This document shows, piece after piece, positions 9,590 to 30,972 of a stretch of DNA of 64,000 nt. Location: positions 62,001 through 126,000 of the forward strand of contig CABIKM010000026.1 in NCBI GenBank assembly GCA_902196205.1, in the 5' to 3' direction. The translations under genes and the position numbers were made by a program. This DNA comes from Candidatus Methylomirabilis lanthanidiphila (GTDB lineage Bacteria > Methylomirabilota > Methylomirabilia > Methylomirabilales > Methylomirabilaceae). Numbering within the stretch: the first letter of the stretch is position 1; every line of letters starts with the position of its first letter. The notes below the pieces were generated by a model that saw only the letters and a list, made by a program, of their open reading frames with translations, did no database searches and had not been told where the DNA came from.

Positions 9590-9631
9590 GACCGTCTCAC
9601 TTGAGGATGCTCCAATAAAACGGAAATAGAA

Positions 9632-9675
9632 GTGGGCAGGCGCTCATCTCATCCATCAAGCGAGGGCCTGCCCAC
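9632..9675 (-). terminator. Probable terminator between htrA and queE
   Basis: A perfect 10-bp inverted repeat, GTGGGCAGGC (9632-9641) and GCCTGCCCAC (9666-9675), with a 24-base loop, lies just past the htrA stop. On the minus strand it is followed by a T-rich run (TCTATTTCCGTTTTATT). The long loop lowers confidence. Confidence 0.55.
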
Positions 9676-9707
9676 CAAACAACAAATAACCTGGAACCGT
9701 GATACGA

Positions 9708-11192
9708 CTAACCTTCGGACCCGATCACCACATACCGCGTTCCACCGTCCCGCTTGACCAGAAGGAGTGTCGGTTCGTCCGGCTTCGTTTTCTCCAAGAC
9801 CCGCCTGACCTGGCTGACTGTCGTCACCTTTACGCGGTTGATCTCCAGAATCAGATCGCCGGGCTGTAACCCGACCGCGTCGCCTGGGCTATCAGGTTCA
9901 ACCTCCGTAATCACGACTCCCTTTTCCCCCTTCAATCCAAACTTGCGAGCGAGCGCCGGAGTGAGTTCCTGTATATCGATCCCCAGCTTCATTTTTGGAG
10001 AGGTCGACGTCGTGGCCGCCACCTGCTCCTCTTTGAGTTCGCCGACCTTGACCTGCAGCGTCACTTCGGCTCCATCGCGGACAACTTTCATGGCAACCTC
10101 TTTGCCCACAGGGGTGCTGGCCACGAGATGAGGCAAGTCGGTGGAGGACTTGACGTTTTTATCATCGAACGCCACGATGACGTCCCCCTGTTTCAGCCCG
10201 GCCTGTTCTGCCGGTGATCCCTCCGTAACTTCCGATACCAGGGCGCCATTTGCCTGCTTGAGAGAAAATTTCTTGCCCAGCTCCGGGGTAATCGGCTGAA
10301 TGGCTACACCAAGCCACCCTCGGGTGACCTGCCCACGCTCTCTTAGCTGGGGCAGGATCTCCTTTGCCATATCAATCGGAATCGCAAAACCGATTCCGAT
10401 TGAACCTCCCGTTGGGCTAAAGATAGCGGTATTGATTCCTACCGCCTCGCCGTTCGTGTTGATCAACGGTCCGCCGCTGTTGCCTCGATTAATCGAGGCA
10501 TCGGTCTGGATGAAGTTGTCATATGGGCCCTCTCCGATAAACCGGCCCTTGGCGCTGACGATACCGGTCGTGACCGTCTGGTTCAAACCGAATGGATTGC
10601 CGATGGCCATGACCGGCTCGCCGACTTCCAGCTTATCCGAGTTGCCAAAAGGGATCACCGGCAGGTTGGAGGCCTCGATTTTAATGATAGCGATATCGGT
10701 CTTTGGATCTCTCCCGATCACCTTCGCCTTGAGCTCTCGACCGTCACCCAGCTTCACGGTAATGTCCGTAGCGTTCTCAACGACGTGATTGTTCGTTAGA
10801 ATATAGCCGTCTTTGTTGATAATGAATCCTGATCCAAGGCTGGTCGCCTTGAACTGCCTCGGTTGGTCGCCGAAAAATCGTTTGAAGAACTCATTAAAGG
10901 GGTCGTCTTCACTGAAAGGACTACGGGACGGGATACCCCTTTTGACCACCTGGGTGGTACTGATATTCACCACCGCGGGAGTCAGTTCCTTCGCTAACTT
11001 CACCCAGAGCTTCCCATCCGAAATCTGACTCGAACTGAACAGCCCGCTCTCTCCCTTTTCGGTCCACACTTGAGCGGTCGTCGCCCTTGTGAGCGGGACT
11101 AAGTTCAAGGAGGCTGTAATCAGCACTCCAAGAATCAGACAGGAAGCTGCAACGAGAATTAAGGTTCTGGTGTTAAACCGGCCGTGGCGCAT
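9708..11192 (-). CDS. htrA: Periplasmic serine protease of the HtrA/DegP/DegQ family
   Basis: 494 residues from the ATG at 11192, chosen because AGGGGG lies ~5 bases upstream and the signal/membrane segment (TLILVAASCLILGVLITASL) then starts at once. The protease domain shows the catalytic triad context: His in NNHVVENA, Asp in KTDIAIIKI, Ser in GNSGGPL. Two PDZ domains follow, the second ending about 10 residues before the stop. The family degrades or refolds misfolded envelope proteins. It is monocistronic, bounded by a likely terminator downstream and a divergent membrane gene upstream. Confidence 0.95.
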   Translation of the reverse strand: MRHGRFNTRTLILVAASCLILGVLITASLNLVPLTRATTAQVWTEKGESGLFSSSQISDGKLWVKLAKELTPAVVNISTTQVVKRGIPSRSPFSEDDPFNEFFKRFFGDQPRQFKATSLGSGFIINKDGYILTNNHVVENATDITVKLGDGRELKAKVIGRDPKTDIAIIKIEASNLPVIPFGNSDKLEVGEPVMAIGNPFGLNQTVTTGIVSAKGRFIGEGPYDNFIQTDASINRGNSGGPLINTNGEAVGINTAIFSPTGGSIGIGFAIPIDMAKEILPQLRERGQVTRGWLGVAIQPITPELGKKFSLKQANGALVSEVTEGSPAEQAGLKQGDVIVAFDDKNVKSSTDLPHLVASTPVGKEVAMKVVRDGAEVTLQVKVGELKEEQVAATTSTSPKMKLGIDIQELTPALARKFGLKGEKGVVITEVEPDSPGDAVGLQPGDLILEINRVKVTTVSQVRRVLEKTKPDEPTLLLVKRDGGTRYVVIGSEG

Positions 11193-17712: not shown

Positions 17713-18114
17713 TCACCGGGATTCCGTTCGTTCTTTCAAGAGTGCTTCCAAGGCGCGGTTCTTAGGATCTTTCGGCCGTGGCAAGTGCCAAAAGTCATGA
17801 GGTAGTTTATCTGTCCCGATTTTGGCCAGCCCCGCTGTCTTGACCGCCAGACCCTTCAACTCGGCAAAGACCGGTGACGCCGTGTTGGCGTGATAATACA
17901 CTTGGTTCCCGCGCTGCGTCCTAACAAGCAGCCCGGCTTCGACCCAGCGCGCCAACTCGCGCTGCGCCGCCCCCTGGCCGATCTCGGCCGTGCGCACAAT
18001 CTGCCGGAGATAAAACGACTGCTCCGGCCGCACGAAGAAGAGCCTCAGCAGCGCCCGCTGCGTCTTGCCGAACAACGCCGTGCCGATTGTATGGACTGAA
18101 CTGACCGTACTCAT
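17713..18114 (-). CDS. Winged-helix transcriptional regulator with a foreign C-terminal tail
   Basis: About 133 residues from the ATG at 18114. Residues ~10-80 form a winged helix (KTQRALLRLFFVRPEQSFYLRQ, then RELARWVEAGLL) of the kind fused to minimal nucleotidyltransferase domains in many genomes. Here, just after KGLAVKTAGLA where the nucleotidyltransferase domain should begin, the chain switches to a short Pro/Lys-rich end (LPHDFWHLPRPKDPKNRALE) that looks like the C-terminus of a small antitoxin. It may be a chimera created by deletion. GTAC-containing inverted bases just upstream of the start could be an autoregulatory site. Confidence 0.6.
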   Translation of the reverse strand: MSTVSSVHTIGTALFGKTQRALLRLFFVRPEQSFYLRQIVRTAEIGQGAAQRELARWVEAGLLVRTQRGNQVYYHANTASPVFAELKGLAVKTAGLAKIGTDKLPHDFWHLPRPKDPKNRALEALLKERTESR

Positions 18115-18170
18115 TCTGGGTACGAGTGTATCCACGTAGGGTACAACTTTCAAGTCTCTTGTGCGCCCGC

Positions 18171-18254
18171 GCCCTGAAGTACGAGAAGGTCTATCTGAAA
18201 GACTACATGGAGGTTCTGGAGGCTATCGAATCAGGCCGGCTTCCTGAAAACTGA
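18171..18254 (+). mobile_element. Fragment of an IS3-family transposase (OrfB C-terminal region)
   Basis: In one plus-strand frame the bases encode ALKYEKVYLKDYMEVLEAI, which strongly resembles the LKYEEVYLKDY segment found near the C-terminus of IS3-group OrfB integrases, just before the FYN..RPH motif. The match stops after about 20 residues and runs into the 3' end of radC, so only a scar remains. It marks the left border of the defence island. Confidence 0.6.
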
Positions 18255-18885
18255 AGTAGCCTTTCCGCGTCACTATCACGTGATCCAGAACGCGAAGTCC
18301 GAGAATCTTCCCGGCCTCCGTCAATTGCTCGTGGATGCGGAGATCGGCCTCGCTTGGTTGAAGGTCGCCGGATGGGTGATTGTGGGCAAAGATCACGGCG
18401 GCGGAACGGTCCGCGATGACGTCGGCGAATACTTCACGCGGATGAACCGGGCTTTTGTCGAGCAGACCAATGGTGACCACACGCTTTTCGATGACCTCGT
18501 TCGCGCCGTTCAGGGAGATGCACACGAAATACTCTTGTTGTTTCCCAGCGATGTCGGCCACAAGCGGCAGCACGTCCTGAGCCACGGTGATCTTGACGGT
18601 GTCCTTGAGTAGGTGTCGCCGGGCCAGCTCAAAGGCCGACAGGATTTGCGCGCCCTTCGCAAGCCCCATGCCGGGGACGGCCAGCAAGTGATCGAGTGTC
18701 AGGTCCGCCTTGTGCTCCCGGATCAGCCCCGCCACCTGCCGGGCCATCGTGCGGACATCAATACCCACGGTTCCCACACCGAGGATCGCCGCGACAAGCT
18801 CCTCGTCGGATAGGGCCGACGCGCCTCTCTCCCGCAATTTCTCGCGGGGGCGGCAGTGCTCCGGCATGTCCTTGATAGTTTTCAT
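18223..18885 (-). CDS. radC: RadC family JAMM/MPN+ domain protein
   Basis: 220 residues, full length for the family. A helix-hairpin-helix region (LDHLLAVPGMGLAKGAQIL) precedes the metalloprotease-like domain with HNHPSGDLQPSEAD near residue 168, the intact JAMM metal-binding motif. Despite its old name a role in DNA repair is not established; RadC-like genes are frequent in mobile and restriction loci. It is the last gene of the island. Its first 13 codons (MKTIKDMPEHCRP) are also present as truncated copies ending modules upstream at 20325-20363 and 23614-23652, which makes this gene the terminal anchor of the stack. Confidence 0.92.
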   Translation of the reverse strand: MKTIKDMPEHCRPREKLRERGASALSDEELVAAILGVGTVGIDVRTMARQVAGLIREHKADLTLDHLLAVPGMGLAKGAQILSAFELARRHLLKDTVKITVAQDVLPLVADIAGKQQEYFVCISLNGANEVIEKRVVTIGLLDKSPVHPREVFADVIADRSAAVIFAHNHPSGDLQPSEADLRIHEQLTEAGKILGLRVLDHVIVTRKGYFSFQEAGLIR

Positions 18886-18916: not shown

Positions 18917-19738
18917 TTAACGAGATCCGTTGGACGACCATAACCTGCTAAACTCCGGCGTCTCTCGCTCACTCCACCGGTAGATCGCATCACTATACCC
19001 ACGGAGGATAGCAATTGTCTGGTCACTCACCCGTCTGAAGGACTCTTCAGACTCGTCAACTAAGGGATCTGGCGACCGAACGTCATTGAGAACAACCACC
19101 CGCTGGCTGGCTGGACGCGTTTCTTTCAACTCCATCCATGTGAAGGACACTAGCTTGGCCGTCTGTGGGGACGGACTTCCAATCAATTTTACCAGTCGCT
19201 CTATCTTGGGATGCAGTGGGATAACAAAGTCTATGGGATGCTCCACAGTTCGCCCTGGTATGCTCACATTTGCCGTGTACAGAACCTGGCGACGGTCAAG
19301 GAATTCGGCGACCATCTCAAAGAAATCGATAAGAGTATACGGGACCTGACTCATCCATAGATCATTGAGTCGAATAACTGCCGTCAGAAGGTAGTGAGCT
19401 CGTTGTGATAGGTTGGCGGCAGTAGCGGTTGTTTCCAGCCGTTCCTTTGTCTGCCGCACCGCGCATCCCGCTATTGCTCTTTCGATCAAAGCTTTCCGGC
19501 GTGCAGAATCTTCAATCTTGACTCCGAGGCACTGAAGGTTCTCCAAAGTGTTACCGTTGTCATGAAGAACGAATTCCCCGTTAGAGCGCTCAATGTAGAT
19601 CTGAATACCGTCGTGGAACGGGTCCAAAAACGGAGTACTTAAGACTGACACGTCCCCTCGCTCGATTACCCTTAAACGCTCTTTGAGCCAGTTCAGGTAA
19701 TCCTGAACGATATCGTTGTGCGGCCGAGCTACTGCCAT
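18917..19738 (-). CDS. DUF1828/DUF1829 domain protein (candidate defence gene)
   Basis: 273 residues. The N-terminal half matches DUF1828 (TPFLDPFHDGIQIYIE, then FVLHDNGNTLENL), and the C-terminal half matches DUF1829, with TAKLVSFTWMELKE and VVVLNDV. I know of no biochemical function for either domain. The gene starts one base after the stop of the DUF6978-like gene and probably forms a two-gene module with it. The module occupies the third cargo slot between an hsdS-tail/radC-head scar and radC, where the other two slots hold anti-phage systems. There is no signal peptide or membrane segment, so it is probably cytosolic. A role in defence is inferred only from position. Confidence 0.7.
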   Translation of the reverse strand: MAVARPHNDIVQDYLNWLKERLRVIERGDVSVLSTPFLDPFHDGIQIYIERSNGEFVLHDNGNTLENLQCLGVKIEDSARRKALIERAIAGCAVRQTKERLETTATAANLSQRAHYLLTAVIRLNDLWMSQVPYTLIDFFEMVAEFLDRRQVLYTANVSIPGRTVEHPIDFVIPLHPKIERLVKLIGSPSPQTAKLVSFTWMELKETRPASQRVVVLNDVRSPDPLVDESEESFRRVSDQTIAILRGYSDAIYRWSERETPEFSRLWSSNGSR

Positions 19739-19739
19739 C

Positions 19740-20174
19740 TTAGATGAGCTCCATCTGTATACCGTGAGGGAAGTGCGCGCTAATCAGTTCAAGAAAACGC
19801 TCCAGCGTACCAAACGGATTGTTCGCATCGTACCAATCGACCGGATCGGCCCATTCTAATCCGAATCCTTCGCGGTACCGGTGCAAGTGGGGTTGGTCCC
19901 TTATTTCCGTACCATCAGGATTGGGATGATACGGGTTATTATCCAGCCGAACAAGCCCCATGTCTCGATCTCTAGTCCTGAAGTGAAGCCGAACCTCAAA
20001 GGGATTCCGCTTCAAAGAGAGCACAAACCTAAGCCCTTTCTCGTTGGTAGCCGTTAAGCCCTCGTCGGTGTGCCTGTTGGCAATCCACACGAAAGGATCG
20101 GTCCTTTCGGCCTCCTTGGCAGCCTCTATCAGTCTATCTGCTTGGGCTTGAGTCAGCAAGTTTCGTCCTTTCAC
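19740..20174 (-). CDS. DUF6978-like protein (candidate defence gene)
   Basis: 144 residues, starting at a GTG at 20174 with a weak ribosome binding site. The pattern FVLSLKRNPFEVRLHFRTR, then NPDGTEIRDQPHLHRYREGF, fits the DUF6978 family as I recall it, which is often encoded next to DUF1828 proteins. The clustered His and Asp residues (HPNPDG, HLHRY) could bind a metal or act as a hydrolase site, but this is speculation. It begins ~30 bp beyond the hsdS-tail scar at 20204-20331, so it is the first gene of the third module. Confidence 0.55.
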   Translation of the reverse strand: MKGRNLLTQAQADRLIEAAKEAERTDPFVWIANRHTDEGLTATNEKGLRFVLSLKRNPFEVRLHFRTRDRDMGLVRLDNNPYHPNPDGTEIRDQPHLHRYREGFGLEWADPVDWYDANNPFGTLERFLELISAHFPHGIQMELI

Positions 20175-20203
20175 TGGGGGTGTCTTCTCGGGTTCCCTCC
20201 TCC

Positions 20204-20363
20204 CCCCACATCTCCGCCAGCTTCGCCCACATCTTCTTCTCCATCCGCACGATCAGCTCCCGATTCGCCTCCGCCAACTTGCGCTCCGTCTCCAACTCGG
20301 CGACGATCCGGCGCTGGGTGGCGAGGGGCGGCTGTGTTCCGGCATGTCCTTGATGGTTTTCAT
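20204..20363 (-). pseudogene. Hybrid scar A: radC 5' end fused to hsdS 3' end
   Basis: Read on the minus strand, 20363-20325 is a radC start (MKTIKDMPEHSRP). At a shared CCGCCCC the sequence switches to the 3' end of a type I specificity gene; in that frame it encodes RRIVAELETERKLAEANREL and continues to KLAEMWGEE near 20204, the same tail that ends hsdMS. Neither piece is functional: the radC frame stops after 36 codons at 20253. Bases 20231-20357 are identical to 23520-23646. The start codon overlaps, as ATGA, the stop of the probable extended herA frame. Confidence 0.9.
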
Positions 20364-20504
20364 TTCTTACTATTGCCGTCCGGAGATTCTGCATCCGGTT
20401 TTGGCTTCTCTGATCGAATCCAATAGTCGCAAATCTTGGCGATGTCGGGTTCCTTCCGTTGTCCAATCTTCTTGCCCCAATGTTTTCCGAATTCAGGATC
20501 ACCG

Positions 20505-22199
20505 CTATTCGGAACTCGGTCTTTTTTCTGCAATCGGTGAGACCTCAAGTCGAACCGGCATCTTCGACGCTTGGCCGATGGCGATGACCTGGCCACGGGG
20601 TAGGGACGGCAGAACACTGGTCAACATCTGCATCGAATCCGGCAGCAAGGCGAGGACATGGTTCTTATCAACAGTATTGGCAAGCCGCATGCAAAGGAAG
20701 GTATTGCACTGGCTCAAAAGCGTTTCACTTAATTCACTGGGACGCTGACTGACAACCAGCGTACCGATTCCGAATTTCCGGCCTTCCTTTGCGATACGCT
20801 CCACGCTGTCTCGTGCCTCTCCGTAGGCGCCTCGACCACTCCGCGAAATATAGTTGTGCGCCTCCTCATATACAGCCAGTGTCGGGGTCGTTGCACCCCG
20901 TTCAGCGAGGAAATGGACCTGAAATAGCATGCGCGAAATGGTCGCCACCACCGTGCCAACCGTTTCCGAGGGCAGGTAGCTGAGGTCAAACACAGTAATC
21001 GGTGTTGATTTGTCACCGAGGAAAGCCGTCATCTTGCGTACAATGTCGGGAAGTTCATCCTTACTCTTTTCCTTGAGCGTGTATTTGAACATGAATGCGT
21101 AACGCGGATCATTTATGCGAGAGTCAACACGCAACACCAGGCGGTCCAGTTGTCCATTCATAGGACCAGGGGAAATGGATCCTGCCTTCTTTGGTTGGAA
21201 TTTCATCCTTTTTCCGAACCAGTCCTCTGTTTCACCCACCTCCAACGCCCAGTTATCGGACTTGTCCTGTGTCGCTGCATTTTGGTTGTGGAGGTAATTT
21301 TGAAGCCCTGTAATATCGAATGGAACGGGGGCATCTAAATCTACCTTCTCGGCCAGCACCTTGTCAGTTAGCACATCTTTGCAGTAAGTCTGCTTGAGCT
21401 TCAGAATGCCCTCTCTGAAGGCCCAACTTTGGTTATGAATATTGAATTGGTTTCCTAAGTCTGCGCACAGTTGAAAGAGGTCATCAAACCCGTGCAACCA
21501 AGCAGGTAGTGAAAGCAAGTCAGCACGGATGTGCCGAGCCTCTGCGCCGAAGCAGGTGCTGTACTCGCCATGTAGATCGAAGACAACAATGTTGCCGCCT
21601 GGAAAGTCAGACACAAGCTGCTGAATCAGCCGGGCAACGGTATATGACTTCCCGCAACCTGTTGTGCCGACAATAGCCGTATGCTTGCCCAGAAGATGAT
21701 CAACGTCGAGATAAACCGGCAAGTCCGAATCAACATGGTTGCCAATAGAAACAACGTTCCGGTCTGCGGGCGGGGAAAGCGCAATGCGAAGGTGATCTTC
21801 CAGAGCCAGCGTGACAACGTCACCAACTACCGGCAACCGGAACACGCCGACCTCAAAAGCGCCGCCAACAATCGTGCCGACAATCACACCGTCAATGAGT
21901 GTCTTGTCGATCTGATTCGTGGGCATCGGAAGAAATGGGAAATGCCCTGCGGGCAGTAGTGGGTTGCTTTGCCCTGCGCCAACAGAGGGCTCGGTGGGTA
22001 CCCACTTGCTTTTTCTGACAGTTGTGACGAGGACAAGGTACTTATCGTGACCTGCGTCAACGATCAGATAGGTTCCCGGCTGCCCGACTGTGTAGGTTGC
22101 GCCTTCGTGGCGCACATGTAAGTCGCTCAACTGTGGGTCAACCTCAACTGTCACCTGCGCTCCGGAGACCGCGAGCACCTGCCCGATATTCTTACTCAT
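20505..22199 (-). CDS. HerA-like DNA translocase/ATPase of a SIR2-HerA defence module
   Basis: 564 residues as read. An N-terminal beta-barrel (HAS-barrel-like) domain leads to a DUF87/HerA FtsK-like ATPase with Walker A GTTGCGKS at 178-185 and a Walker B region LAVYEEAHNY, plus the arginine-containing VVSQRPSELSETLLSQCNT segment. HerA forms hexameric rings; with SIR2 it forms a known anti-phage complex that degrades NAD. The start overlaps the SIR2 stop as ATGA. Oddity: at an A6 tract (20522-20527 on the plus strand) the frame ends after ten more codons, while one base fewer would add 53 plausible residues (for example HWGKKIGQRKEPDIAKICDYW) and end exactly on the following ATG at 20360-20363. 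A one-base insertion near the 3' end is likely. Confidence 0.88.
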   Translation of the reverse strand: MSKNIGQVLAVSGAQVTVEVDPQLSDLHVRHEGATYTVGQPGTYLIVDAGHDKYLVLVTTVRKSKWVPTEPSVGAGQSNPLLPAGHFPFLPMPTNQIDKTLIDGVIVGTIVGGAFEVGVFRLPVVGDVVTLALEDHLRIALSPPADRNVVSIGNHVDSDLPVYLDVDHLLGKHTAIVGTTGCGKSYTVARLIQQLVSDFPGGNIVVFDLHGEYSTCFGAEARHIRADLLSLPAWLHGFDDLFQLCADLGNQFNIHNQSWAFREGILKLKQTYCKDVLTDKVLAEKVDLDAPVPFDITGLQNYLHNQNAATQDKSDNWALEVGETEDWFGKRMKFQPKKAGSISPGPMNGQLDRLVLRVDSRINDPRYAFMFKYTLKEKSKDELPDIVRKMTAFLGDKSTPITVFDLSYLPSETVGTVVATISRMLFQVHFLAERGATTPTLAVYEEAHNYISRSGRGAYGEARDSVERIAKEGRKFGIGTLVVSQRPSELSETLLSQCNTFLCMRLANTVDKNHVLALLPDSMQMLTSVLPSLPRGQVIAIGQASKMPVRLEVSPIAEKRPSSE

Positions 22200-23431
22200 T
22201 GTGCGCCCTCCGTGGTCTTCGTTGTGCCGGGCATGGCATCCAGTGTCTTGAATTCCGGAACGAACTGCGAGAATTCCATACTAATGACAGGTTGAACTGA
22301 GCGGGAGACCCCGAAGAGGGACTTGAGATTGTCGCTCTTCACCTGCGGGTCAACGACAAATAGAAGCGTGTTGTCGCGTTCGACAAATGACCGAATTGCT
22401 GAGCGGATGTGCTGATCAGGGAAGCTCGTCCCAATGCAAATCAGTAGTTCAATTTCCTCCAGTGTGCGCCGGAATGCCTCAAACAGATCCATGTACGGCA
22501 CGGTATATGTCTGAGAGTATTTCGCTGGCGTGGGGAAGATCACGATTCGTTTACTTCGGTCCGGTTGCTTAGCGGACAGCGCGCCGCAACTCGCTAGGTT
22601 ATCCGACAAGCTCCCGTCAACTCTGCGAACGATTATGGATTGATCAGAATAGTCCGCTTCGCCTTCTCCCGACCCGTCAGCACCAATGGCCTGAGCATAG
22701 GTCCAGTCAACGGAACCGTGTAGTTTCCAGTAATAGACGGCGCATCGTTCACCAAACGAAGATACCTCCCGTCTATAGCATCCCATGTTGAACGTCGGCA
22801 GTATCGCACTTTCAAATCCGTCCACCAAGACGAGGTCCGGTCGGCGGTCGGCACGAGGCCGTTGTGATAAGCGGACCAACGCAGCTTCAACGCACAGGTC
22901 AATATTCGTGGAGAAAACTCGAATGAGTTTGTTTGCCGGTTTCCCAAAGGAAGCCATAGCCAGGAAGAAGTCGGCCAAATAGTCCACGTTGCCGCTGCCA
23001 TGTTTGGAGTGCTTATGGCTCGACAGGTCGCACATCTCGGCCATGAATCCGATAAGTTCTTCCGAAGCCTGCCTGATTGCCGTTGCAGGAATCTCGGATT
23101 TCCCAATAGCAGTTGTCACCGGGGCGAATGCGGTATGTGCAGTCCCCGCAGCGTCGAGGAGTTGAGATAGTCTGGTCAGCAAGTCCTCGATATTCCAATT
23201 CGCAAGTATCTTCTGGTCTTCGGGGCACAGCGTCTTCAATAGATCCAGCGTCGGCTTGGTGATTCCGTAATCGGGTTTGTTGTCTCGAATCTGACCGCGA
23301 AGGATTTCAGCGATTTCCACCATGGTCGGAATGCCGTAGTCGTAACTTGCCCCGGCGCCGAGGAATACCGCCCATCGCTCTTTAGCCTGTCGTAAGCTGT
23401 TGTGCAGGTTCAGTACCGGGGAATCACCCAT
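22196..23431 (-). CDS. SIR2-like NADase of a SIR2-HerA defence module
   Basis: 411 residues from the ATG at 23431. The SIR2 Rossmann fold is plain: FLGAGAS at 23-29 (NAD pyrophosphate loop), STNID at 174-178, and YYWKLHGS at 233-240 with the likely catalytic His238, then IGTSFPDQHIRSAI near the C-terminus. SIR2 effectors of this kind hydrolyse NAD on phage infection, and the adjacent HerA gene (4-bp ATGA overlap) identifies the two-gene SIR2-HerA system. A 13-bp tandem duplication places a second, out-of-frame ATG with the better-placed ribosome binding site just upstream (see findings). It sits in the second cargo slot of the hsdS/radC stack. Confidence 0.9.
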   Translation of the reverse strand: MGDSPVLNLHNSLRQAKERWAVFLGAGASYDYGIPTMVEIAEILRGQIRDNKPDYGITKPTLDLLKTLCPEDQKILANWNIEDLLTRLSQLLDAAGTAHTAFAPVTTAIGKSEIPATAIRQASEELIGFMAEMCDLSSHKHSKHGSGNVDYLADFFLAMASFGKPANKLIRVFSTNIDLCVEAALVRLSQRPRADRRPDLVLVDGFESAILPTFNMGCYRREVSSFGERCAVYYWKLHGSVDWTYAQAIGADGSGEGEADYSDQSIIVRRVDGSLSDNLASCGALSAKQPDRSKRIVIFPTPAKYSQTYTVPYMDLFEAFRRTLEEIELLICIGTSFPDQHIRSAIRSFVERDNTLLFVVDPQVKSDNLKSLFGVSRSVQPVISMEFSQFVPEFKTLDAMPGTTKTTEGAQ

Positions 23432-23455
23432 GACTATCACCCATGACTATCTCCT
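23431..23455 (-). promoter_or_regulatory. Duplicated start region of the SIR2 gene
   Basis: On the minus strand AGGAG is followed by two tandem copies of ATAGTCATGGGTG. The first ATG (23444) has ideal spacing from AGGAG but opens only a six-codon frame (MGDSHG) whose TGA overlaps the second ATG (23431), which starts the SIR2 protein. Translation of the SIR2 gene may therefore depend on re-initiation. Confidence 0.5.
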
Positions 23456-23493
23456 GTCTTGAGATCAACCGCAGCGCGGGCGATCAGTTCCCC

Positions 23494-23652
23494 CCCAAAT
23501 CTCCGCCAGCTTGCCCTGAATCTTCTTCTCCATCCGCACGATCAGCTCCCGATTCGCCTCCGCCAACTTGCGCTCCGTCTCCAACTCGGCGACGATCCGG
23601 CGCTGGGTGGCGAGGGGCGGCTGTGTTCCGGCATGTCCTTGATGGTCTTCAC
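23494..23652 (-). pseudogene. Hybrid scar B: radC 5' end fused to hsdS 3' end
   Basis: Same structure as scar A: on the minus strand a radC head (23652-23614, here with GTG start) is joined at CCGCCCC to an hsdS tail that ends in KKIQGKLAEIWG near 23494. The radC frame stops at 23542. It begins one base after the stop of the RloC-like gene and ends ~65 bp before the SIR2 start. The distal tail (IQGKLAEIWG) is closer to the authentic HsdMS end (IQVKLAEIWG) than to scar A (MWAKLAEMWG), although 127 bp around the junction are identical between the scars. Confidence 0.9.
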
Positions 23653-23653
23653 G

Positions 23654-26023
23654 TCAGACTTTCTCCGCACCGCTGAAGGTCTCCTGAATTGCCGAACAGA
23701 TTTCTTCGCGGGTCAACGTGTGCTCAGGTAGTTTTGCCAACCCGCCGTGATGGGCCATATCTGAAAGCCTGCATAAGCGGAACAGTTGATCCTTCGTGGC
23801 GTTGCTGACGAGTCCTTTACCGTGAAGAGTGCCAATGAGGTCGCCTAATCCGCTCTTGTCCTTGATTTCGGCGGCTAGGGTTCGGTAGTACTTGGTTTTC
23901 AGAATGATCTCGAAAACCTTGCGGATGTTGCCCTGCATATCTTCGGGTGTGGGTCCGAAGTCCTCGTCCAGATAGCGACTCATGTCGTCACACAGGCGGG
24001 CGATCTCCGCTTTGCGATCGTCCTCTACATCAAAAGGTTCGATCCAGCTACCGTTCTTCTTGTCGGACTTAAGTTGAAGCACGCCCTTGTTTTGAATGCC
24101 GTCGAAAAGCATCCGAAGAAAGTCCTTCTTGTGGGTGAACACGCAAAGCTGATTCACCAGAGGGGAAAGACCAGCCAGTAATGTGACCGTGCCTAAACGC
24201 CGAGTCTCGTCCAGACTGGAAAGCGGATCGTCAAAGATGACGATTTGCTTGTCGAGTTCCGGCGCCTTCTCCAGTGCTGCAATGAAGAAAGCAAAGGCCA
24301 ACGTACTCTTGTCGCCCTCGCTGAGCGTATTCTTGAAGGACGGCGCATCGTCCTGGCGGGATGTGAGCGGGACTTTCTGTTCCAGAATGAGGAATTCAAA
24401 ATCGCTGTAGCTTTCGTTTGCCCGCTCATCTGTCTTTCCTGTCAAACCGATGATGGTGAAGTCGGCTCCTAAAGACAAAAGGCGCCTGTTGATGCGTGTC
24501 TGGTACGTCTCGAAGATGGTCTTGGTGTAGGCGGCAAGCTCAGCCTCCTTGGCCTTCTTCTGGTTCAGAAGGTTGTCGGCGTCCATCTTGACCGCCTGGT
24601 AGTCAGTTGCCCATTTCTTCCATTCTGGCTTAAACCGCGACTGGATCTCCCGTTCCTTCGCCAGCGCAATGCGGATCGAAGGAACGTCCGACTTTGGCAG
24701 ACTCGCAACGCAGTTCTTCGCTTTCTCTGTGAAAGCCGTGACTGCCGTGTTGTACGATTCGACAGCCATTTTTATCGAGGCGAGCTCAGCGGTGAGAGCG
24801 TCGAATTGCGGCAGCTCAGCATCGGCGTTCGGGTCTTTCTGCTTCTTATCCAACTCGGACTGGATCTTAGCCTTCAACTCGGTAAGTTTGGGACGGAGGG
24901 TCTCAGCGGTAGCCGAAACAGCGGGCAACGTTTCCACTCCAATAAAGGGTTCCCACTGCCTCAACGTGGCAATGTTGGCGTTATGGACGGAAACCAGCGC
25001 TGTGAGGTCGTTGTCGAGATTCCATTTGGCAAGTGCCGAGGCCCGCAGGACGAGATTCTGTTGGTAAGTCCGGAAGGCATCGTTGAAGAATTCCTGGTAT
25101 GCCTTTAGGAGATCAGCCGCGTTTTTTAGATTCTGTCCGCAGAACGGGCAATCCGCCTGCACATGATCGAGCCCTTGCCGTATGAACTCCTTCGCTTGCG
25201 CTTTGTTTTTGATGTTCTGGTCAATGTGAGTAAGAACGCGCTTCTCGGCAGTCGCATGTGCGGCGGCGAGCTTTTTTGCGACGAGTGCCCTCAACTCGTT
25301 CAGGTAATTAAGTGGGGTCGACATCTCCTCCTCGTCCTGGATGACATCCGACGAGTCTTGCCCTGGTTGAGTCGGATCGAAGTCCGGTGCCGTTAATGTG
25401 TTTGGATAGCTGAGTTGCCGGATTCGGGTCTCGGATTCCTTTGACTTAATGTCTTGTTCAAGCTTCTGGATTCGCGTGATAACCGCGATTTCTTCAGCGG
25501 TAGAAATTGTCATGAAAGCGTCGAGTTTGTGATGTGTGAAGCGAGCGTCTGTAAACTGCTTGGCAAGGACTTCGAATTGCTGTCTCCGTTCCTTCTCACG
25601 GTTCTTTAGGTTAGCGAGTTGTTCAGCCAGCTTGATCCCCTCAGCGCCGATGATGATCTTGTGAATGTTCTTTTTGTGTTCATGTTCGATCTTTTGGGCA
25701 AGGATGTTCGCATGGATGAAGGGGGTGTCGAAAATCCGAATGTTGGGAAACGGCCTATCCCATCTCGTGTCGTTGAAAACATGGTTTGCCCCGTCAATAA
25801 TGATGACGGCTTCGGGCGCGGCGACTTTGCCCAAGGTCTTGCGACTTTGGACCAATTTCGAGTTATTGTCGCGCAGAGATCGGAGGACATTGACAAGGGT
25901 TGACTTGCCATAGGCGTTGGGAGCAAAAAGGAAGGTATTTTTATGCCAATCTAACCCCTCGCCTTTTGCGGTAAAGCCATAGAACTTGCCGACGTTCTTG
26001 AGGAGCTTGACCTTGGTGATCAT
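23654..26023 (-). CDS. RloC/PrrC-like AAA_13 ATPase, probable restriction-linked anticodon nuclease
   Basis: 789 residues; the start ATG overlaps the hsdMS stop as ATGA. It is an ABC/SMC-type ATPase: Walker A region APNAYGKST (34-42), a long coiled-coil middle with a zinc-hook-like CPFC at 292-295 embedded between helices, ABC signature LSEGDKSTLAF (~568-577), Walker B IVIFDDPLSSLDE (~594-606) and a switch His in CVFTHKKDF. The C-terminal domain has R701-x3-E705 and a later AHHGG (His758/759), reminiscent of the Arg-Glu-His set of the PrrC/RloC anticodon nucleases. Those proteins guard type I restriction systems and cut tRNA when restriction is inhibited. The nuclease assignment is inference; a plain AAA_13 ATPase is the alternative. 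Confidence 0.7.
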   Translation of the reverse strand: MITKVKLLKNVGKFYGFTAKGEGLDWHKNTFLFAPNAYGKSTLVNVLRSLRDNNSKLVQSRKTLGKVAAPEAVIIIDGANHVFNDTRWDRPFPNIRIFDTPFIHANILAQKIEHEHKKNIHKIIIGAEGIKLAEQLANLKNREKERRQQFEVLAKQFTDARFTHHKLDAFMTISTAEEIAVITRIQKLEQDIKSKESETRIRQLSYPNTLTAPDFDPTQPGQDSSDVIQDEEEMSTPLNYLNELRALVAKKLAAAHATAEKRVLTHIDQNIKNKAQAKEFIRQGLDHVQADCPFCGQNLKNAADLLKAYQEFFNDAFRTYQQNLVLRASALAKWNLDNDLTALVSVHNANIATLRQWEPFIGVETLPAVSATAETLRPKLTELKAKIQSELDKKQKDPNADAELPQFDALTAELASIKMAVESYNTAVTAFTEKAKNCVASLPKSDVPSIRIALAKEREIQSRFKPEWKKWATDYQAVKMDADNLLNQKKAKEAELAAYTKTIFETYQTRINRRLLSLGADFTIIGLTGKTDERANESYSDFEFLILEQKVPLTSRQDDAPSFKNTLSEGDKSTLAFAFFIAALEKAPELDKQIVIFDDPLSSLDETRRLGTVTLLAGLSPLVNQLCVFTHKKDFLRMLFDGIQNKGVLQLKSDKKNGSWIEPFDVEDDRKAEIARLCDDMSRYLDEDFGPTPEDMQGNIRKVFEIILKTKYYRTLAAEIKDKSGLGDLIGTLHGKGLVSNATKDQLFRLCRLSDMAHHGGLAKLPEHTLTREEICSAIQETFSGAEKV

Positions 26024-28440
26024 TCCGCTCCCCAAATCTCGGCCAGCTTCACCTGAATCTTCTTCTCCACCCGCGCGATCAAGTCCCGGTTCGCCTCCAC
26101 CAACCTCCGCTCCGCCTCCAACTCCGCCACGATCTGGCGCTGGATGTCGAGGGGCGGGAGGGGGATTGGAACGGTCTCGACTATTGACTGGTTGATCTTC
26201 GGCATACTCCCGGCTGAACCCGATGCATTCCTCTTAAGAAAAGCCCTCGCATCGGGAGATTGAAGTACGACAATCAAATACTCACTCAATACGATGGACT
26301 CGTTTGCCCGAATTCTGATCATCAAGTCCGGATAGACATAATCTCCGTCATCAACATTAAACAACGCGGCAGTTCCAACTAATTCGGCGGTGTTTCCACG
26401 CTGAAGGAAGATGTCGCCCTTACGGCATCGCACTGGAGAGTCCCGACTGATTCTCTCATCCAAGTATTTGAATTGCGCGATGTCCAATCGACCGCTGGTT
26501 GTGGCACTCAACGACAAGACCTTCACTTTCGTAGGGAAATCAACAGGCTTCCCAGAGTAACCGTTCTTCGGTTTCTCCGTAATGATGTCTCCGAGACGCC
26601 GAACAGACCACGCCGGATCAATCCGGATGGTGGGTTTGTAGTTGGCGATGACCTGGCGGGCGCCTTCGATGACCTTCCGGTAGCCCTCCAACTCCGCCAC
26701 GATCCGCTCCTGCTCCGCCAGCGGCGGGAGGGGGACTTCTATTACGACTAAGTCTTTCGCATAGACGTGCGGTTGCGCCATACCTTTCTGGATGCCGTAA
26801 ATTGCTTTTTGTTTTCCTTTGAGAATTTCAGAAACAAAGCGAGTTTTCGCTTTCTGTTCATCGAGCGAAATAATCGTTGTGCAATCGGTAGCGAAGATGG
26901 GGACTTCGAAATAGTTTACGAACCCAGCATACGCGCCAGACGCGCTCACTGTGATAACTGGTGGTTGGCGGTTCGCCTCTGCGTGGTAGCAAGAAGGCAC
27001 TTGTCCGCCAGCAATCACGGGAACATTTCCAGGCTTTGCTTGGGCTCTTGTAAAACTAGCTCCCTTTTCCAGTTTGCACACCTTCCCTAACTTCACCATC
27101 GGCCACTTGCCGTTGGGGAGGGTAGCAACGGGGCGATAGCGGTCGCCGGAGAGGTTGCAGTCGGGCGATTCGAGGAGGCGCTTGCGACTCACGGCATGCG
27201 CCATTTTATTTTCTCCCGTTTGTCGCCCCTTCTTGTGGCTATCCATAATCCTCAGCGCGCCCATCAAATCGCTTCCCTCGATCGGCCTTCTCTGTGCGCC
27301 GAGGTTGAATCCGTCGTTCTCCACCTTCACAAACAGCACCTCATCCGTCCGCTTTGCGAGGTTGCGGTCGAGGAAGAGGATGCTGGTTTTCACGCCGCTA
27401 TATGGATTAAACACGCCAGCCGGAAGGCTGACTACGGCCCAGAGGTAATTCTCAACGAGCATTCGGCGCAGGTTCTTGTAGGCGTTCTGGCTCTGGAAGA
27501 TGATCCCCTCTGGAACGATGACGCCCGCGCGTCCGCCTGAGTTGAGGTGCTCGGCAATGTAGTCCACGAACAGCACTTCGCTTCGCTTGGCTTTGATGGA
27601 AAACCGGTTGTGCGGGCGGATGCCGCCTGTCGGGGTCATGAACGGCGGATTGGCCATGATCACGTCACACCGCTCGTCCCATCGCTCTTCGCTGGTCAGT
27701 GTGTCGTACTCGTGAAGGGTCGGATTCGGGAAGCCGTGCAGGTATAGGTTGACGCGCGAAAGGCGCACCATGTCGGGCGCAATGTCATAGCCCCGAAAAT
27801 TGGTCATCAGCCGCGCCCGCTCGTCCGGGGTGAGGTTCTCGTTGTTCCGTACAATGTGCTTGAACGCCGAGATGAGAAAGCCTGCCGTGCCGCAGGCCGG
27901 ATCAAGGACGGTGTCATTCTTCTGCGGATCTACAACGGCAACGATAAAGTCGATAATATGGCGCGGGGTGCGGAACTGCCCGGCGTCGCCTTGGGTGCCA
28001 AGAACGGAGAGCAGGTATTCGTAGGCATCGCCGAGGCGTTCGCTGTGATCGTAGGTGAACCCGGCGATCTCTTTCAGGAACAGGTTGAGCGTTTCAGGGT
28101 CGCGGTATGGCAGGAACACGCCCCTGAAAATGTCCCGAAAGAGTTGAGGAATATTCTTATTCTCGTTCATCTTCTCGATGCCTTCGGCATAGAGACCCAG
28201 GCGCTCGTGACCACCGAGGCGCTTGTCGAGCAGATTGGCCCACCGGTATTTCTTGAACTCGCCGATGAAGAACGTCGCCTTGCCGCCCAGTTCTTCGGAC
28301 TGGCGGTCCATGTCGTCCATGAATTTGTAGATCAGGGCAATCGTAATCTGCTCCACCTGCGATTTCGGATCGGGCACCTTACCGACCAGGATGTCGCGCG
28401 CGGAGTCGATTCTTGCTTTGGTGTCAGTATCTAACATCAC
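26020..28440 (-). CDS. hsdM: Fused type I DNA methyltransferase and specificity subunit (HsdM-HsdS)
   Basis: 806 residues. Residues ~1-430 are an N6-adenine methyltransferase with an N-terminal helical HsdM domain, SAM-binding motif DPACGTAGF (180-188) and catalytic NPPF (264-267). Residues ~440-806 are a specificity region with two target-recognition domains, each followed by a conserved helical repeat (LPPLAEQERIVAELE and LPPLDIQRQIVAELE). One polypeptide therefore carries both methylation and bipartite recognition. It starts 7 bp after hsdR. Its final ~45 codons (to KLAEIWGAE) are the parent-type sequence of the two hsdS-tail scars downstream. Confidence 0.92.
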   Translation of the reverse strand: MMLDTDTKARIDSARDILVGKVPDPKSQVEQITIALIYKFMDDMDRQSEELGGKATFFIGEFKKYRWANLLDKRLGGHERLGLYAEGIEKMNENKNIPQLFRDIFRGVFLPYRDPETLNLFLKEIAGFTYDHSERLGDAYEYLLSVLGTQGDAGQFRTPRHIIDFIVAVVDPQKNDTVLDPACGTAGFLISAFKHIVRNNENLTPDERARLMTNFRGYDIAPDMVRLSRVNLYLHGFPNPTLHEYDTLTSEERWDERCDVIMANPPFMTPTGGIRPHNRFSIKAKRSEVLFVDYIAEHLNSGGRAGVIVPEGIIFQSQNAYKNLRRMLVENYLWAVVSLPAGVFNPYSGVKTSILFLDRNLAKRTDEVLFVKVENDGFNLGAQRRPIEGSDLMGALRIMDSHKKGRQTGENKMAHAVSRKRLLESPDCNLSGDRYRPVATLPNGKWPMVKLGKVCKLEKGASFTRAQAKPGNVPVIAGGQVPSCYHAEANRQPPVITVSASGAYAGFVNYFEVPIFATDCTTIISLDEQKAKTRFVSEILKGKQKAIYGIQKGMAQPHVYAKDLVVIEVPLPPLAEQERIVAELEGYRKVIEGARQVIANYKPTIRIDPAWSVRRLGDIITEKPKNGYSGKPVDFPTKVKVLSLSATTSGRLDIAQFKYLDERISRDSPVRCRKGDIFLQRGNTAELVGTAALFNVDDGDYVYPDLMIRIRANESIVLSEYLIVVLQSPDARAFLKRNASGSAGSMPKINQSIVETVPIPLPPLDIQRQIVAELEAERRLVEANRDLIARVEKKIQVKLAEIWGAE

Positions 28441-28446
28441 GTTTTC

Positions 28447-30972
28447 CTAGGCCGCAAAAGCGTTCAATGAAACATAATCCTTCACGTATTCCGGGATCAC
28501 GTCCCGCCACTGGTCGAGGGCGCGCACGTCCGCCAGCGACACCTTGGGGTTGTCCGCCAGCTTGGGGAATTCGCGGGAATCCACAATAGCCCGGACGCCT
28601 CCGTCGGTGACATACGCTTTGAAGAATTGCCGGATAACCGGCATGTGCATGGCGTCAGGTTTATAGATCGAGACGAACTTCGCCAACTCTTCTTCGAGCA
28701 GTTCGTCCTTGGTCTTGAACCGATCAATCTCACCGAACACCTTGGCGAGGATTTCGCGCAATGTGACGCGGCGGTCGAGTTGGACGGCCTTGCGGAGTTT
28801 GTCAAGATTGAAGAAGTCCTCCGGCTTGTTGAACAGCGCCGTCACCACGACCTCTTCTGCGCCCTTGATGTCGCCGCGCTCGTACCGCTCGCGGACTTCG
28901 AGCGCGGCCTTGACCTTGTCCTCAAACTTCTCGAAGAATTTGCGGTCAATCTTCATGCCGTGGAGGGGGACAGGAATTTCAACATACTCGGCCAGCGGGT
29001 CCGGGTTCACGTTTGTGAAAGCTGGCGAGACTAGCGGGGGTGGTGGTGGTTCCGGCCCCAACCCGGTCGGACGCAACGGTGGCAACTTAATGACCTCATC
29101 GTAGTTGAATTTCTCCTCGAAATATTCGCAGTTGGCGAAGAAATCGAACAGCTTGAATCGTTCTTTCTGTTTCGTGTGTTCCTCAGTACGCCCACCCTCC
29201 TTCTCCACGTAGCGAAACGTATATGTGCGCGTGCCGCGCCCTTTGATTTGGATAAAGTCGGTCGGCGAGAAGATCGGGCGGAGCAGGACGATGTTCAAGA
29301 TGTCTTCACAGTCGTAGCCGGTCGTCATCATCCCGACCGTGACACAGACGCGGGTCTTTGAACTGATGTGACCGTCCAGAAAGCTGGTGTGTCCATTGAG
29401 GTTGTTATTGGCGAAACTGATCGCCATTTGCTGAGCTTCGTCTATCCGCGACGTGACCTGGACGGCGAAGTCCGAGTTGTATTTACCGGGAAACATCGCG
29501 TGGGCCAGTTCGTTCAGCTTTTGAGTGATGCGGGTGGCGTGGTCCTGCCGGATGCAGAAGACGATGCTCTTGCCGATCTCGCCGCTGAGCGGATCGCGGA
29601 GGGCGTTCTTGAGAAAGGTGTCACAGAATACGCGGTTGGTTTCGTCGGAGAAAAACCTCTTCTCGAAGTCCCGCCCGAAGAACGTCTGCTCGACCAATTC
29701 GCCGTCTTCGTTCTCCGACATCACGGAGTAGCCTTCTTCGGCGAGCAGTTCCGTGGTGATCTCGGTCCGCGCGTCCACGACGACCGGGTTCAGCAGGTAA
29801 TCCTCGCGTACGCCGTCAATCAGACTGTAGCGGAAGGTCGGCGTTCCGCTCTCACAACCAAAGGTCTTGTAGGTGTCCATCAATTGGCGGCGTTCCCACT
29901 CGCGCGGATCGCGCTGGTTGATCCTCGCTGGGTCAATCTTCTTGAGGTAGTCCTTCGGCGTCGCGGTCAGGCCGAGTTTGTAGCCAATGAAATATTCGAA
30001 CACCGCACGACTGTTGCCGCTGATGGAGCGGTGCGCTTCGTCCGAGATCAGCAGGTCAAAGTCTGTCGGCGAAAACAGCCGCCGATACTTGTTGTTGAAC
30101 TGAAGGCTTTGAACGGTGGATACCACGATGTCGGCCTTGCGCCAGTCGTCACGATTCTCCTTGTAGATGACGGTGCGGTAGTCGTTCTTGAGGAACTGAA
30201 CAAATCGCTTCTTCGCCTGATCCTCCAGTTCGATGCGGTCCACTAGAAACAGCGCGCGCTTGGCGTTACCGGTGCGCATGAACAGCTTGATGACGGCGGC
30301 AGCGATCAATGTCTTACCCGTACCTGTAGCCATCTCAAACAGAAAGCGCGTCTGGCCCTTTCGCGCGGCGGCTTGGAGGGCCGCAATCGCCCGAAGTTGG
30401 TACAGGCGAAGGAACTTCAGTTCCGCGTCTTTGATGAAGGCATCACGTTGCGCGGCATCGTTCCACCGAGGATCATTCCGGTAGTTGGGATTCTGAGTGA
30501 CCGCGACGTAATCGGCTTCAATCTTCTCGGTGGCGATGACGTCAGGGTTTGGTGTGAATGCGTGAAAATGGCCGAGTGACTCGGGCGTCGGGAACTCGGT
30601 AATGATGGTTGGGTTGCCGTGCTCCAGGTCCCAGAAGTAATGTAGGTTGCCGTTCGAGAGGATGACGAAGCGAACATTCTGCGAGCGGGCGTACTGACGG
30701 GCTTTTTCCTTGCCGACGAGCGGATCGAGATTTTCGCGCTTGGCCTCCAAGACGGCAATCGGGAAACCGCGTCCGTCCAACAGCAGGTAGTCAACAAAGC
30801 CGTCGCCGGTCTTCTCGAAATCGTCGCCGAGAGCGTCAAGGGTCTTTTTCTTGAGTTTGACGTGCGCTTCGAGCGCGATATTGGCTGGGCCGGTCTCGTC
30901 GTCAAAGAAGCGCCAGCCCGACCGTCGGAGGAGGTCGTTGATCAGAATCCGCGCCTTGGCTTCCTTAGACAT
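28447..30972 (-). CDS. hsdR: Type I restriction endonuclease subunit R
   Basis: 841 residues, shorter than EcoKI HsdR but normal for the EcoEI-like branch. The nuclease core is visible as D61 with E76-A-K78 (VLEAKR). The superfamily 2 helicase motor follows: Walker A MATGTGKT (214-221), DEAH at 311-314, SAT-like GLTATP, and a motif VI region KGRGTR. A C-terminal helical domain contacts the methylase. The complex cleaves unmodified DNA after ATP-driven translocation. It is the first gene of the minus-strand island; about 150 bp separate it from the sigma-54 regulator upstream and presumably hold the promoter. Confidence 0.95.
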   Translation of the reverse strand: MSKEAKARILINDLLRRSGWRFFDDETGPANIALEAHVKLKKKTLDALGDDFEKTGDGFVDYLLLDGRGFPIAVLEAKRENLDPLVGKEKARQYARSQNVRFVILSNGNLHYFWDLEHGNPTIITEFPTPESLGHFHAFTPNPDVIATEKIEADYVAVTQNPNYRNDPRWNDAAQRDAFIKDAELKFLRLYQLRAIAALQAAARKGQTRFLFEMATGTGKTLIAAAVIKLFMRTGNAKRALFLVDRIELEDQAKKRFVQFLKNDYRTVIYKENRDDWRKADIVVSTVQSLQFNNKYRRLFSPTDFDLLISDEAHRSISGNSRAVFEYFIGYKLGLTATPKDYLKKIDPARINQRDPREWERRQLMDTYKTFGCESGTPTFRYSLIDGVREDYLLNPVVVDARTEITTELLAEEGYSVMSENEDGELVEQTFFGRDFEKRFFSDETNRVFCDTFLKNALRDPLSGEIGKSIVFCIRQDHATRITQKLNELAHAMFPGKYNSDFAVQVTSRIDEAQQMAISFANNNLNGHTSFLDGHISSKTRVCVTVGMMTTGYDCEDILNIVLLRPIFSPTDFIQIKGRGTRTYTFRYVEKEGGRTEEHTKQKERFKLFDFFANCEYFEEKFNYDEVIKLPPLRPTGLGPEPPPPPLVSPAFTNVNPDPLAEYVEIPVPLHGMKIDRKFFEKFEDKVKAALEVRERYERGDIKGAEEVVVTALFNKPEDFFNLDKLRKAVQLDRRVTLREILAKVFGEIDRFKTKDELLEEELAKFVSIYKPDAMHMPVIRQFFKAYVTDGGVRAIVDSREFPKLADNPKVSLADVRALDQWRDVIPEYVKDYVSLNAFAA

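What the first reader, a model, noticed from the sequence alone, without database searches (positions are those of the whole stretch)
18917..20174. Candidate new defence pair: DUF6978-like plus DUF1828/DUF1829
The two genes are one base apart, occupy the third cargo slot of a stack whose other slots hold an RloC-like ATPase and SIR2-HerA, and carry domains without a known function. Position in a row of anti-phage modules makes a defence or toxin-antitoxin role a good guess.
Basis: inference. Interest (0 to 1): 0.66.

Follow-up and report, generated by a model that had tools for sequence, protein, structure and literature searches.

The report
Two-gene phage-defence cassette PDC-M24
Two small neighbouring genes form a widespread, probably toxin-antitoxin-like anti-phage cassette that tends to sit inside restriction-modification operons and in prophages; the pair was already on a list of defence candidates, and its mechanism has not been tested.

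Summary
Two ORFs one base apart (A 19740-20174, DUF6978; B 18917-19738, DUF1828+DUF1829) fill one low-GC cassette, bounded upstream by an hsdS-tail/radC-head scar and downstream by radC. The same scar separates the RloC-like and SIR2-HerA cassettes. The pair is not new as a candidate: PADLOC-DB 2023 holds it as PDC-M24 A/B.

New here: A and B are near-obligate partners across bacteria, archaea and phages. In surveys of 1,111 genomes, all 39 confirmed A genes with enough downstream sequence are followed by B. The pair lies in type I restriction operons (any hsd gene within 5 kb in 52 of 80 loci; within 1.5 kb in 16 of 41 survey loci) and, in temperate phages, near the repressor and usually the integrase. 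It moves as a unit (A-B distance r 0.84) and switches restriction hosts (B-HsdR r 0.55). A models confidently without a known fold, has invariant R76, H96, H98, and a sub-threshold Ntox24-like core. B models as a chaperone-like domain plus a PD-(D/E)XK-fold domain without the standard motif.

Most likely A is a toxin, perhaps an RNase, held by B and released on infection. The rival that B is the nuclease stays open. No functional test exists here.

The parts
19740..20174 (-). Gene A, 144 aa, DUF6978 / PDC-M24A; predicted beta-rich protein with conserved R76, D78, H83, N85-P86-D87, H96-x-H98-x-Y100; candidate toxin. Start may be TTG at 20159
18917..19738 (-). Gene B, 273 aa, DUF1828 (T3SS-chaperone/YbjN-like fold, residues ~14-134) + DUF1829 (PD-(D/E)XK fold, ~134-272) / PDC-M24B; candidate antitoxin or sensor
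20202..20378 (-). Scar J1 upstream of the pair: radC 5' head (20325-20363) joined to an hsdS 3' tail; not a gene
23491..23667 (-). Scar J2, 92% identical to J1, between the RloC-like gene and SIR2
26028..26204 (-). 3' end of the genuine hsdMS gene, third copy of the repeat
18223..18885 (-). RadC (220 aa, intact); downstream border of the cassette; its 39-nt head is copied in J1 and J2
20505..22199 (-). HerA helicase, cassette 2
22196..23440 (-). SIR2-like protein, cassette 2
23654..26035 (-). AAA_13 / PDC-S06, RloC-like ATPase, cassette 1
26020..28440 (-). HsdM-HsdS fusion of a type I restriction system
28447..30972 (-). HsdR-like type I restriction helicase

Best explanation
The pair is a mobile two-gene defence cassette of toxin-antitoxin type (PADLOC PDC-M24). 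SHOWN: A and B form a conserved operon with fixed order A-B, mostly with a 4-nt overlap; they are inherited and transferred together; they occupy the cargo position of type I restriction operons and the lysogeny region of temperate phages and satellites; in this window they are one cassette between an hsdS-tail scar and radC. INFERRED: A is the toxin, a small beta-rich protein whose invariant Arg and His-x-His(-x-Tyr) core resembles the Ntox24 toxins, so an RNase-like attack on host RNA is the first guess. B is the antitoxin and sensor: its N-terminal chaperone-like domain clamps A, and its C-terminal PD-(D/E)XK-fold domain, which lacks the usual catalytic motif, binds nucleic acid or a phage product. 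Infection, possibly including phage anti-restriction, frees A and stops the cell, so the cassette is a second line behind the restriction system.
For: Pairing: A sequence found upstream of B in 122 of 140 B loci (two of the 18 misses are copies of this window with B on the minus strand, not scored, and one contig begins at B). Spacing is -4 nt in many genome loci. Surveys: 43 A places in 37 of 1,111 genomes (6 of 369, 7 of 367, 24 of 375); 41 confirmed by profile, B adjacent in 39, contig ends in the other 2. Mirror distances: A-B r 0.84 (74 loci), B-HsdR 0.55 (36), B-HsdM 0.42 (29), HsdR-HsdM 0.99 (23). Context: 52 of 80 loci with an hsd gene within 5 kb, 27 of 80 with HsdS/HsdM directly upstream; HsdM/S density 16.8 per 100 kb within 1 kb, 0.4 at 5-7.5 kb; near genes rich in hsd, DUF1016/YhcG, TOTE and Abi_C, far genes housekeeping. 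Phages: B lies in the repressor region in all eight temperate phage or satellite regions viewed, close to the integrase in seven. Conserved residues. A core resembles Ntox24 at 64-108; Ntox24 is described as all-beta with Y, H, H, also in type II TA systems (PMC3482391, passages). DUF1829 sits in the HipA partner DS-6B of a validated system (PMC13092281, passages). DarTG2 between hsdS and hsdR is a proven embedded TA defence (PMC12255303, abstract and passages).
Against: The Ntox24 match is below the Pfam cut-off (13.3-14.4 bits against 24 in the members listed; best E 0.018 among 75 members) and could not be tested profile against profile because no Ntox24 protein was found in 95 + 33 genomes. 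A has no PDB or viral fold match. Solo B genes exist (L039, L075, L080, L112, L119, L127), which fits an antitoxin but also a self-sufficient B. Pair exchange between HsdR types argues against a dedicated physical link to one restriction enzyme. Single-gene decay is mixed: A broken or degenerate with B intact in L211, L225, L204; B broken with A intact in L226. In this window the pair lies about 6 kb from its type I genes and directly follows only an hsdS-tail scar. Nothing here measured toxicity or defence.
Confidence: 0.5

Rival explanations
1. B is the effector: its PD-(D/E)XK-fold domain is a non-canonical nuclease, and A is the sensor, adaptor or inhibitor.
For: Best fold matches of B 134-272 are active nucleases: PspGI Z 11.5 (121 residues, 2.5 A), AF1548 Z 10.8 (110, 3.1 A; itself of unknown function), Can2, Cdn1 and NucS Z 9-9.5. 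D170 (77/84), E180 (77/84), R181 (81/84), R208 (82/84), N218 (84/84) and D219 (81/84) are conserved, and solo B genes exist.
Against: No (D/E)-x-K in the third core strand: E180-R181-hydrophobic, position 184 is Q/R/K and 186 is hydrophobic. DUF1829 in HipAD sits in the partner of the toxic kinase, not in the toxin. A carries the more active-site-like invariant set.
Confidence: 0.25
2. The pair is an accessory of type I restriction enzymes, tuning or guarding restriction (PrrC-like), rather than an independent defence system.
For: Strong linkage to hsd operons. PrrC is silenced by its linked type I enzyme and set off by a phage anti-restriction factor (abstract of PMC2610378, seen in the listing).
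Against: 25 of 41 survey A loci show no hsd gene within 1.5 kb. Phage-borne copies lie in lysogeny modules without hsd annotation nearby. B-HsdR distances correlate far less than HsdR-HsdM.
Confidence: 0.13
3. A selfish addiction module that stabilises islands, plasmids and prophages, with no antiviral benefit.
For: Found on plasmids, phages and islands.
Against: Enrichment beside defence genes and not merely beside mobile genes; the repressor-integrase position in phages is typical of superinfection-exclusion genes (general knowledge).
Confidence: 0.1
4. A housekeeping or metabolic pair.
For: None found; the far genes in the same loci are housekeeping, the near ones are not.
Against: Patchy presence: DUF6978 in 2 of 60 relatives including this genome and in about 2-6% of survey genomes.
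Confidence: 0.02

Closest known systems
PADLOC PDC-M24 (PDC-M24A + PDC-M24B)
   Same: Both proteins match the two models (A 1e-20, B 1.8e-51), adjacent and in operon
   Different: Nothing found; PDC-M24 itself is an untested candidate. PDCs are described as 'guilt-by-embedding' predictions (PMC12988326, passages)
HipAD / DS-6 (HipA-like kinase + DUF3037-DUF1829 protein)
   Same: DUF1829 protein paired with a presumed toxin in an anti-phage system
   Different: The toxin is a kinase; the first domain of the partner is DUF3037, not DUF1828
DarTG2 embedded between hsdS and hsdR
   Same: A two-gene TA module in the same slot of type I operons
   Different: Unrelated domains (ADP-ribosyltransferase and macrodomain, recalled); controlled by RptR
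Ntox24 toxins (PF15529)
   Same: Beta-rich, H and Y conserved, also reported in type II TA systems
   Different: Sequence match below the cut-off; homology not established
PrrC and RloC anticodon nucleases
   Same: Defence cargo linked to type I restriction loci; an RloC-like gene is in this very stack
   Different: Single ATPase-nuclease proteins; no shared domains with A or B

Membership tests
PADLOC PDC-M24 | A subunit matches PDC-M24A | tested here: met
   E 1e-20, residues 7-139 of 144
PADLOC PDC-M24 | B subunit matches PDC-M24B | tested here: met
   E 1.8e-51, residues 7-222
PADLOC PDC-M24 | The two genes lie together | tested here: met
   One base apart; PADLOC's own spacing rule was not available
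Type II toxin-antitoxin system | Compact two-gene operon, partners rarely found alone | tested here: met
   39 of 39 assessable A genes have B; A upstream of 122 of 140 B loci
Type II toxin-antitoxin system | One protein toxic alone and neutralised by the other through binding | not testable with these tools
Ntox24 (PF15529) | Profile match above Pfam's gathering score (24 bits) | tested here: not met
   13.3-14.4 bits in the members listed, best E 0.018; 20 of 75 members reach E<=10
Ntox24 (PF15529) | All-beta with conserved Y, H, H (PMC3482391) | tested here: inconclusive
   A is mostly beta with two helices; H96, H98 75/75 and Y100 72/75; positional equivalence not shown
PD-(D/E)XK nucleases (domain DUF1829) | Alpha-beta-beta-beta-alpha-beta core fold | tested here: met
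   PspGI Z 11.5, AF1548 Z 10.8, Foldseek E 1.8e-4; secondary structure H136-149 E155-161 E166-176 E179-186 H191-207 E212-217
PD-(D/E)XK nucleases (domain DUF1829) | Catalytic D ... (D/E)-x-K | tested here: not met
   D170 present, no conserved (D/E)-x-K in strand 3; strand register read from the model's secondary structure by eye
T3SS-chaperone/YbjN-like fold (domain DUF1828) | Fold similarity | tested here: inconclusive
   8q8o Z 9.9, 3cxj Z 9.2, SycN-YscB 8.7, SycE 8.3, YbjN 6.9 over residues 14-134; middling Z
Type I restriction-linked guard (PrrC type) | Genetic linkage to a type I system | tested here: met
   52 of 80 loci (any hsd gene) and 16 of 41 survey loci; in this window in the same island but not adjacent
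Type I restriction-linked guard (PrrC type) | Silenced by the restriction complex, triggered by an anti-restriction protein | not testable with these tools
   Needs experiment

The most novel reading that the evidence does not exclude
DUF6978 is a new toxin fold, and DUF1829, a catalytically silenced PD-(D/E)XK domain, is a portable antitoxin/sensor module that has been joined to unrelated toxins (DUF6978 here, a HipA kinase in HipAD). Restriction operons and prophages would use such couples as interchangeable second-line cassettes, here swapped between hsdS tails and radC heads.
Probability: 0.3. Interest if true: 0.62.

Novelty: new member of a known kind. Interest (0 to 1): 0.42.

Why it matters
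If the toxin-antitoxin reading is right, a pair present in bacteria, archaea and their viruses gives a second example of DUF1829 acting as a defence-toxin partner, makes one slot of type I restriction operons a general address for abortive-infection cassettes, and offers a conserved His/Arg-rich protein without a solved relative for enzymology.

Tried and rejected
Rejected: (1) fused A-B proteins as proof of contact. L204 and L216 are single frames, but L204's A has lost the H-x-H and L216 is a deletion joining the front of A to the back of B, so both look decayed. (2) 'B often occurs without A' from profile misses: L192 and L193 have a diverged A with HEHTW, and L195, L198 and L199 have a small unassigned ORF in its place. 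(3) Phage DUF1828-only ORFs (L114, L116, L117, L118) as decoy anti-defence proteins: 5 to 10 nonsynonymous against 3 to 5 synonymous codon differences among distinct copies give no sign of purifying selection; kept as a lead only. (4) ORF 20134-20502 overlapping A: it reads through scar J1 and is not a gene. (5) Ntox24 members were sought in 95 and 33 genomes; none was found and the control genomes were silent too, so this shows nothing about absence. (6) No solved relative by sequence for A or B. (7) Promoter and terminator scan near chance. (8) The first single-protein scan of viral contigs found no relative. (9) Looking for a functional paper on the pair: searches for DUF1828, DUF6978/PDC-M24 and DUF1829 in the open library found no functional study of it; most subscription papers and all bioRxiv preprints are not held.

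Rows dropped before counts: neighbour set A5 holds 131 of the 139 near genes of the even-numbered half of the loci (8 large genes left out to stay under the size limit, several in the position of hsdR or hsdM, so hsd counts are lower bounds); the 145 near genes of the other half were not scanned. Three short A sequences (L030, L057, L091) of 77 were left out of A4. The 80 genome loci are the best of 374 relatives of an alignment led by an IncP plasmid protein and fall into 24 clusters at 75% single linkage, 8 of them with HsdM/S within 5 kb. Six of the 41 confirmed survey A places lie in genomes that were reached through the B search; without them B follows in 33 of 33 assessable and an hsd gene lies within 1.5 kb in 12 of 35 (counted by hand).

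Full report
WHAT IS THERE. A (19740-20174) is DUF6978; B (18917-19738) is DUF1828 followed by DUF1829. NCBIfam has no match for either. PADLOC-DB 2023 has models for each: PDC-M24A (1e-20) and PDC-M24B (1.8e-51). So the pair is already a catalogued defence candidate. Papers that use PADLOC describe PDCs as 'guilt-by-embedding' predictions, mostly without experiments (PMC12988326, passages; the idea also in PMC12255303, passages). I found no functional paper on this pair.

THE STACK. A 177-nt repeat marks the seams between the cassettes: 20202-20378, 23491-23667 and the genuine hsdS end at 26028-26204; the radC head recurs at 18847-18885. Each inner seam is the first ~39 nt of radC joined to the last ~130 nt of hsdS; J1 and J2 are 96% identical over 161 nt and 84-87% identical to the real hsdS tail. 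Hence hsdS-tail | RloC-like | radC-head + hsdS-tail | SIR2-HerA | radC-head + hsdS-tail | A-B | radC. The cassettes have GC 0.51-0.53, the seams and RadC 0.61-0.63. In other species of the genus the same place carries other genes with the same kind of scars: G005 has a helicase/MTES_1575 nuclease gene, an hsdS-tail remnant and radC; G014 and G008 have GmrSD-like and NTase/HEPN-type genes with two hsdS tails around a 73-nt radC head; G006 keeps an hsdS tail between the response regulator and panE. Both ends of the slot are therefore recurrent recombination points. That stacking proceeds through them is an inference.

THE PAIR ELSEWHERE. An A-B order is found on an IncP plasmid beside a CHAT-domain gene, in an Acetobacter plasmid, in Aerococcus and in Haloarcula. 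It also occurs in temperate phages and a satellite: among eight such regions viewed (L007, L010-L016) B is in the repressor region, and in seven it is close to the integrase; Lj965 has an annotated superinfection-immunity gene next but one. A ninth record, UPMK_1 (L017), is not a clean phage context. A scan of 84,980 species genomes gave 374 relatives of B, of which 80 were kept. A sequence lies upstream of B in 122 of 140 B loci. Three surveys not chosen through B, apart from their centres and a few drawn genomes, gave A in 6 of 369, 7 of 367 and 24 of 375 genomes (by the organism of the centre these should be Gammaproteobacteria, Alphaproteobacteria and Bacteroidota, an inference). Of 43 A places, 41 were confirmed; B follows in 39, and in 2 the contig ends. 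In the first of these groups B was found in 13 of 369 genomes, 16 places; A was found by profile in 10 of these 16, one B starts at a contig end, and the other five have either a diverged A (2) or an unassigned small ORF (3). Solo B genes also exist (L039, L075, L080, L112, L119, L127).

NEIGHBOURS. Of 131 near genes, 13 match Methylase_S, 10 ResIII, 7 HSDR_N, 6 DUF1016_N, 5 YhcG_C, 4 TOTE primase and 4 Abi_C, and up to 17 match a single PADLOC HsdS model. Of 133 genes from the far ends of the same loci, no PADLOC model matches more than 2 and the Pfam list is housekeeping. With profiles grown from this window's own hsd genes, 52 of 80 loci have an hsd gene within 5 kb, often as hsdM-hsdS-A-B-hsdR (the HsdR profile also takes other helicases). 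For HsdM/HsdS alone it is 40 of 80, and their density falls from 16.8 per 100 kb within 1 kb to 0.4 at 5-7.5 kb and 1.8 at 7.5-10 kb. In the A surveys 16 of 41 loci have an hsd gene within 1.5 kb. A and B distances agree (r 0.84); B agrees less with HsdR (0.55) and HsdM (0.42), while HsdR and HsdM agree at 0.99. The pair travels as one piece and changes restriction host.

PROTEINS. A: 75 sequences; R76, H96, H98 and A109 invariant, D78, H83, N85, P86, D87 and Y100 nearly so. AlphaFold2 mean pLDDT 89.5, pTM 0.83, mostly beta with two helices. No fold match: best PDB E 0.22, best Z 4.2, no viral E below 0.001. Of the 75, 20 weakly match Ntox24, in the three members listed over residues 63-108, the stretch that holds the conserved core. 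Ntox24 is described as all-beta with Y, H, H, present in polymorphic toxins and in type II toxin-antitoxin systems, and thought to be a metal-independent RNase (PMC3482391, passages). This is a lead, not membership. B: 84 sequences; P36, D43, D60, L68, F139 and N218 invariant. pLDDT 90.9, pTM 0.66, two domains. Residues 134-272 match PD-(D/E)XK nucleases (PspGI Z 11.5, 2.5 A over 121; AF1548 Z 10.8), residues 14-134 a YbjN/T3SS-chaperone-like fold (Z 7-10). The third strand of the nuclease fold lacks (D/E)-x-K.

HOW IT PROBABLY WORKS. DUF1829 has been seen in the partner of a HipA-like toxic kinase in a validated defence system, for which a toxin-antitoxin model is proposed (PMC13092281, passages). 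DarTG2, a toxin-antitoxin system, works from the hsdS-hsdR slot in E. coli (PMC12255303, abstract and passages). Together with the active-site-like core of A and the degenerate nuclease motif of B, the best reading is A toxin, B antitoxin/sensor, abortive infection as the outcome. I put 0.5 on that assignment and about 0.85 on a defence role of some kind. The chief rival is B as a non-canonical nuclease.

VERDICT. A real, well-bounded and widespread defence candidate, already catalogued; its context, partnership and folds are now much clearer, its biochemistry is not. Interest 0.42.

Noticed in passing
window 18847-18885, 20202-20378, 23491-23667, 26028-26204; L171-L176: hsdS-tail/radC-head scars separate foreign low-GC defence cassettes in this genome and recur, with other breakpoints, in other species of the genus and on another contig of this genome (C64): a cassette-stacking slot next to a sigma-54 response regulator and panE.
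   Followed up: partly
L114 2943-3371, L116 4954-5388, L117 7992-8387, L118 7992-8369: Viral contigs carry an ORF with DUF1828 only, about 65% identical to a betaproteobacterial B, in what looks like a replication region (a Holliday-junction-resolvase-like gene lies just upstream in L117) and without A or DUF1829; decoy or remnant.
   Followed up: partly
L004 5580-7109: On the IncP plasmid pRSB223 a CHAT-domain protein lies just upstream of the pair.
   Followed up: no
L075 about 9563-9946: In this locus an intact B follows an unrelated gene fragment instead of A, between hsdS and hsdR: a possible change of partner.
   Followed up: no
L192, L193, L195, L198, L199: Diverged or unassigned small ORFs upstream of B, some with an H-x-H motif, suggest that the A family is broader than the Pfam model DUF6978.
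   Followed up: partly
window 17713-18153: A small ORF downstream of RadC with weak AbiEi/MarR-like matches, probably a winged-helix regulator left in the same slot.
   Followed up: no
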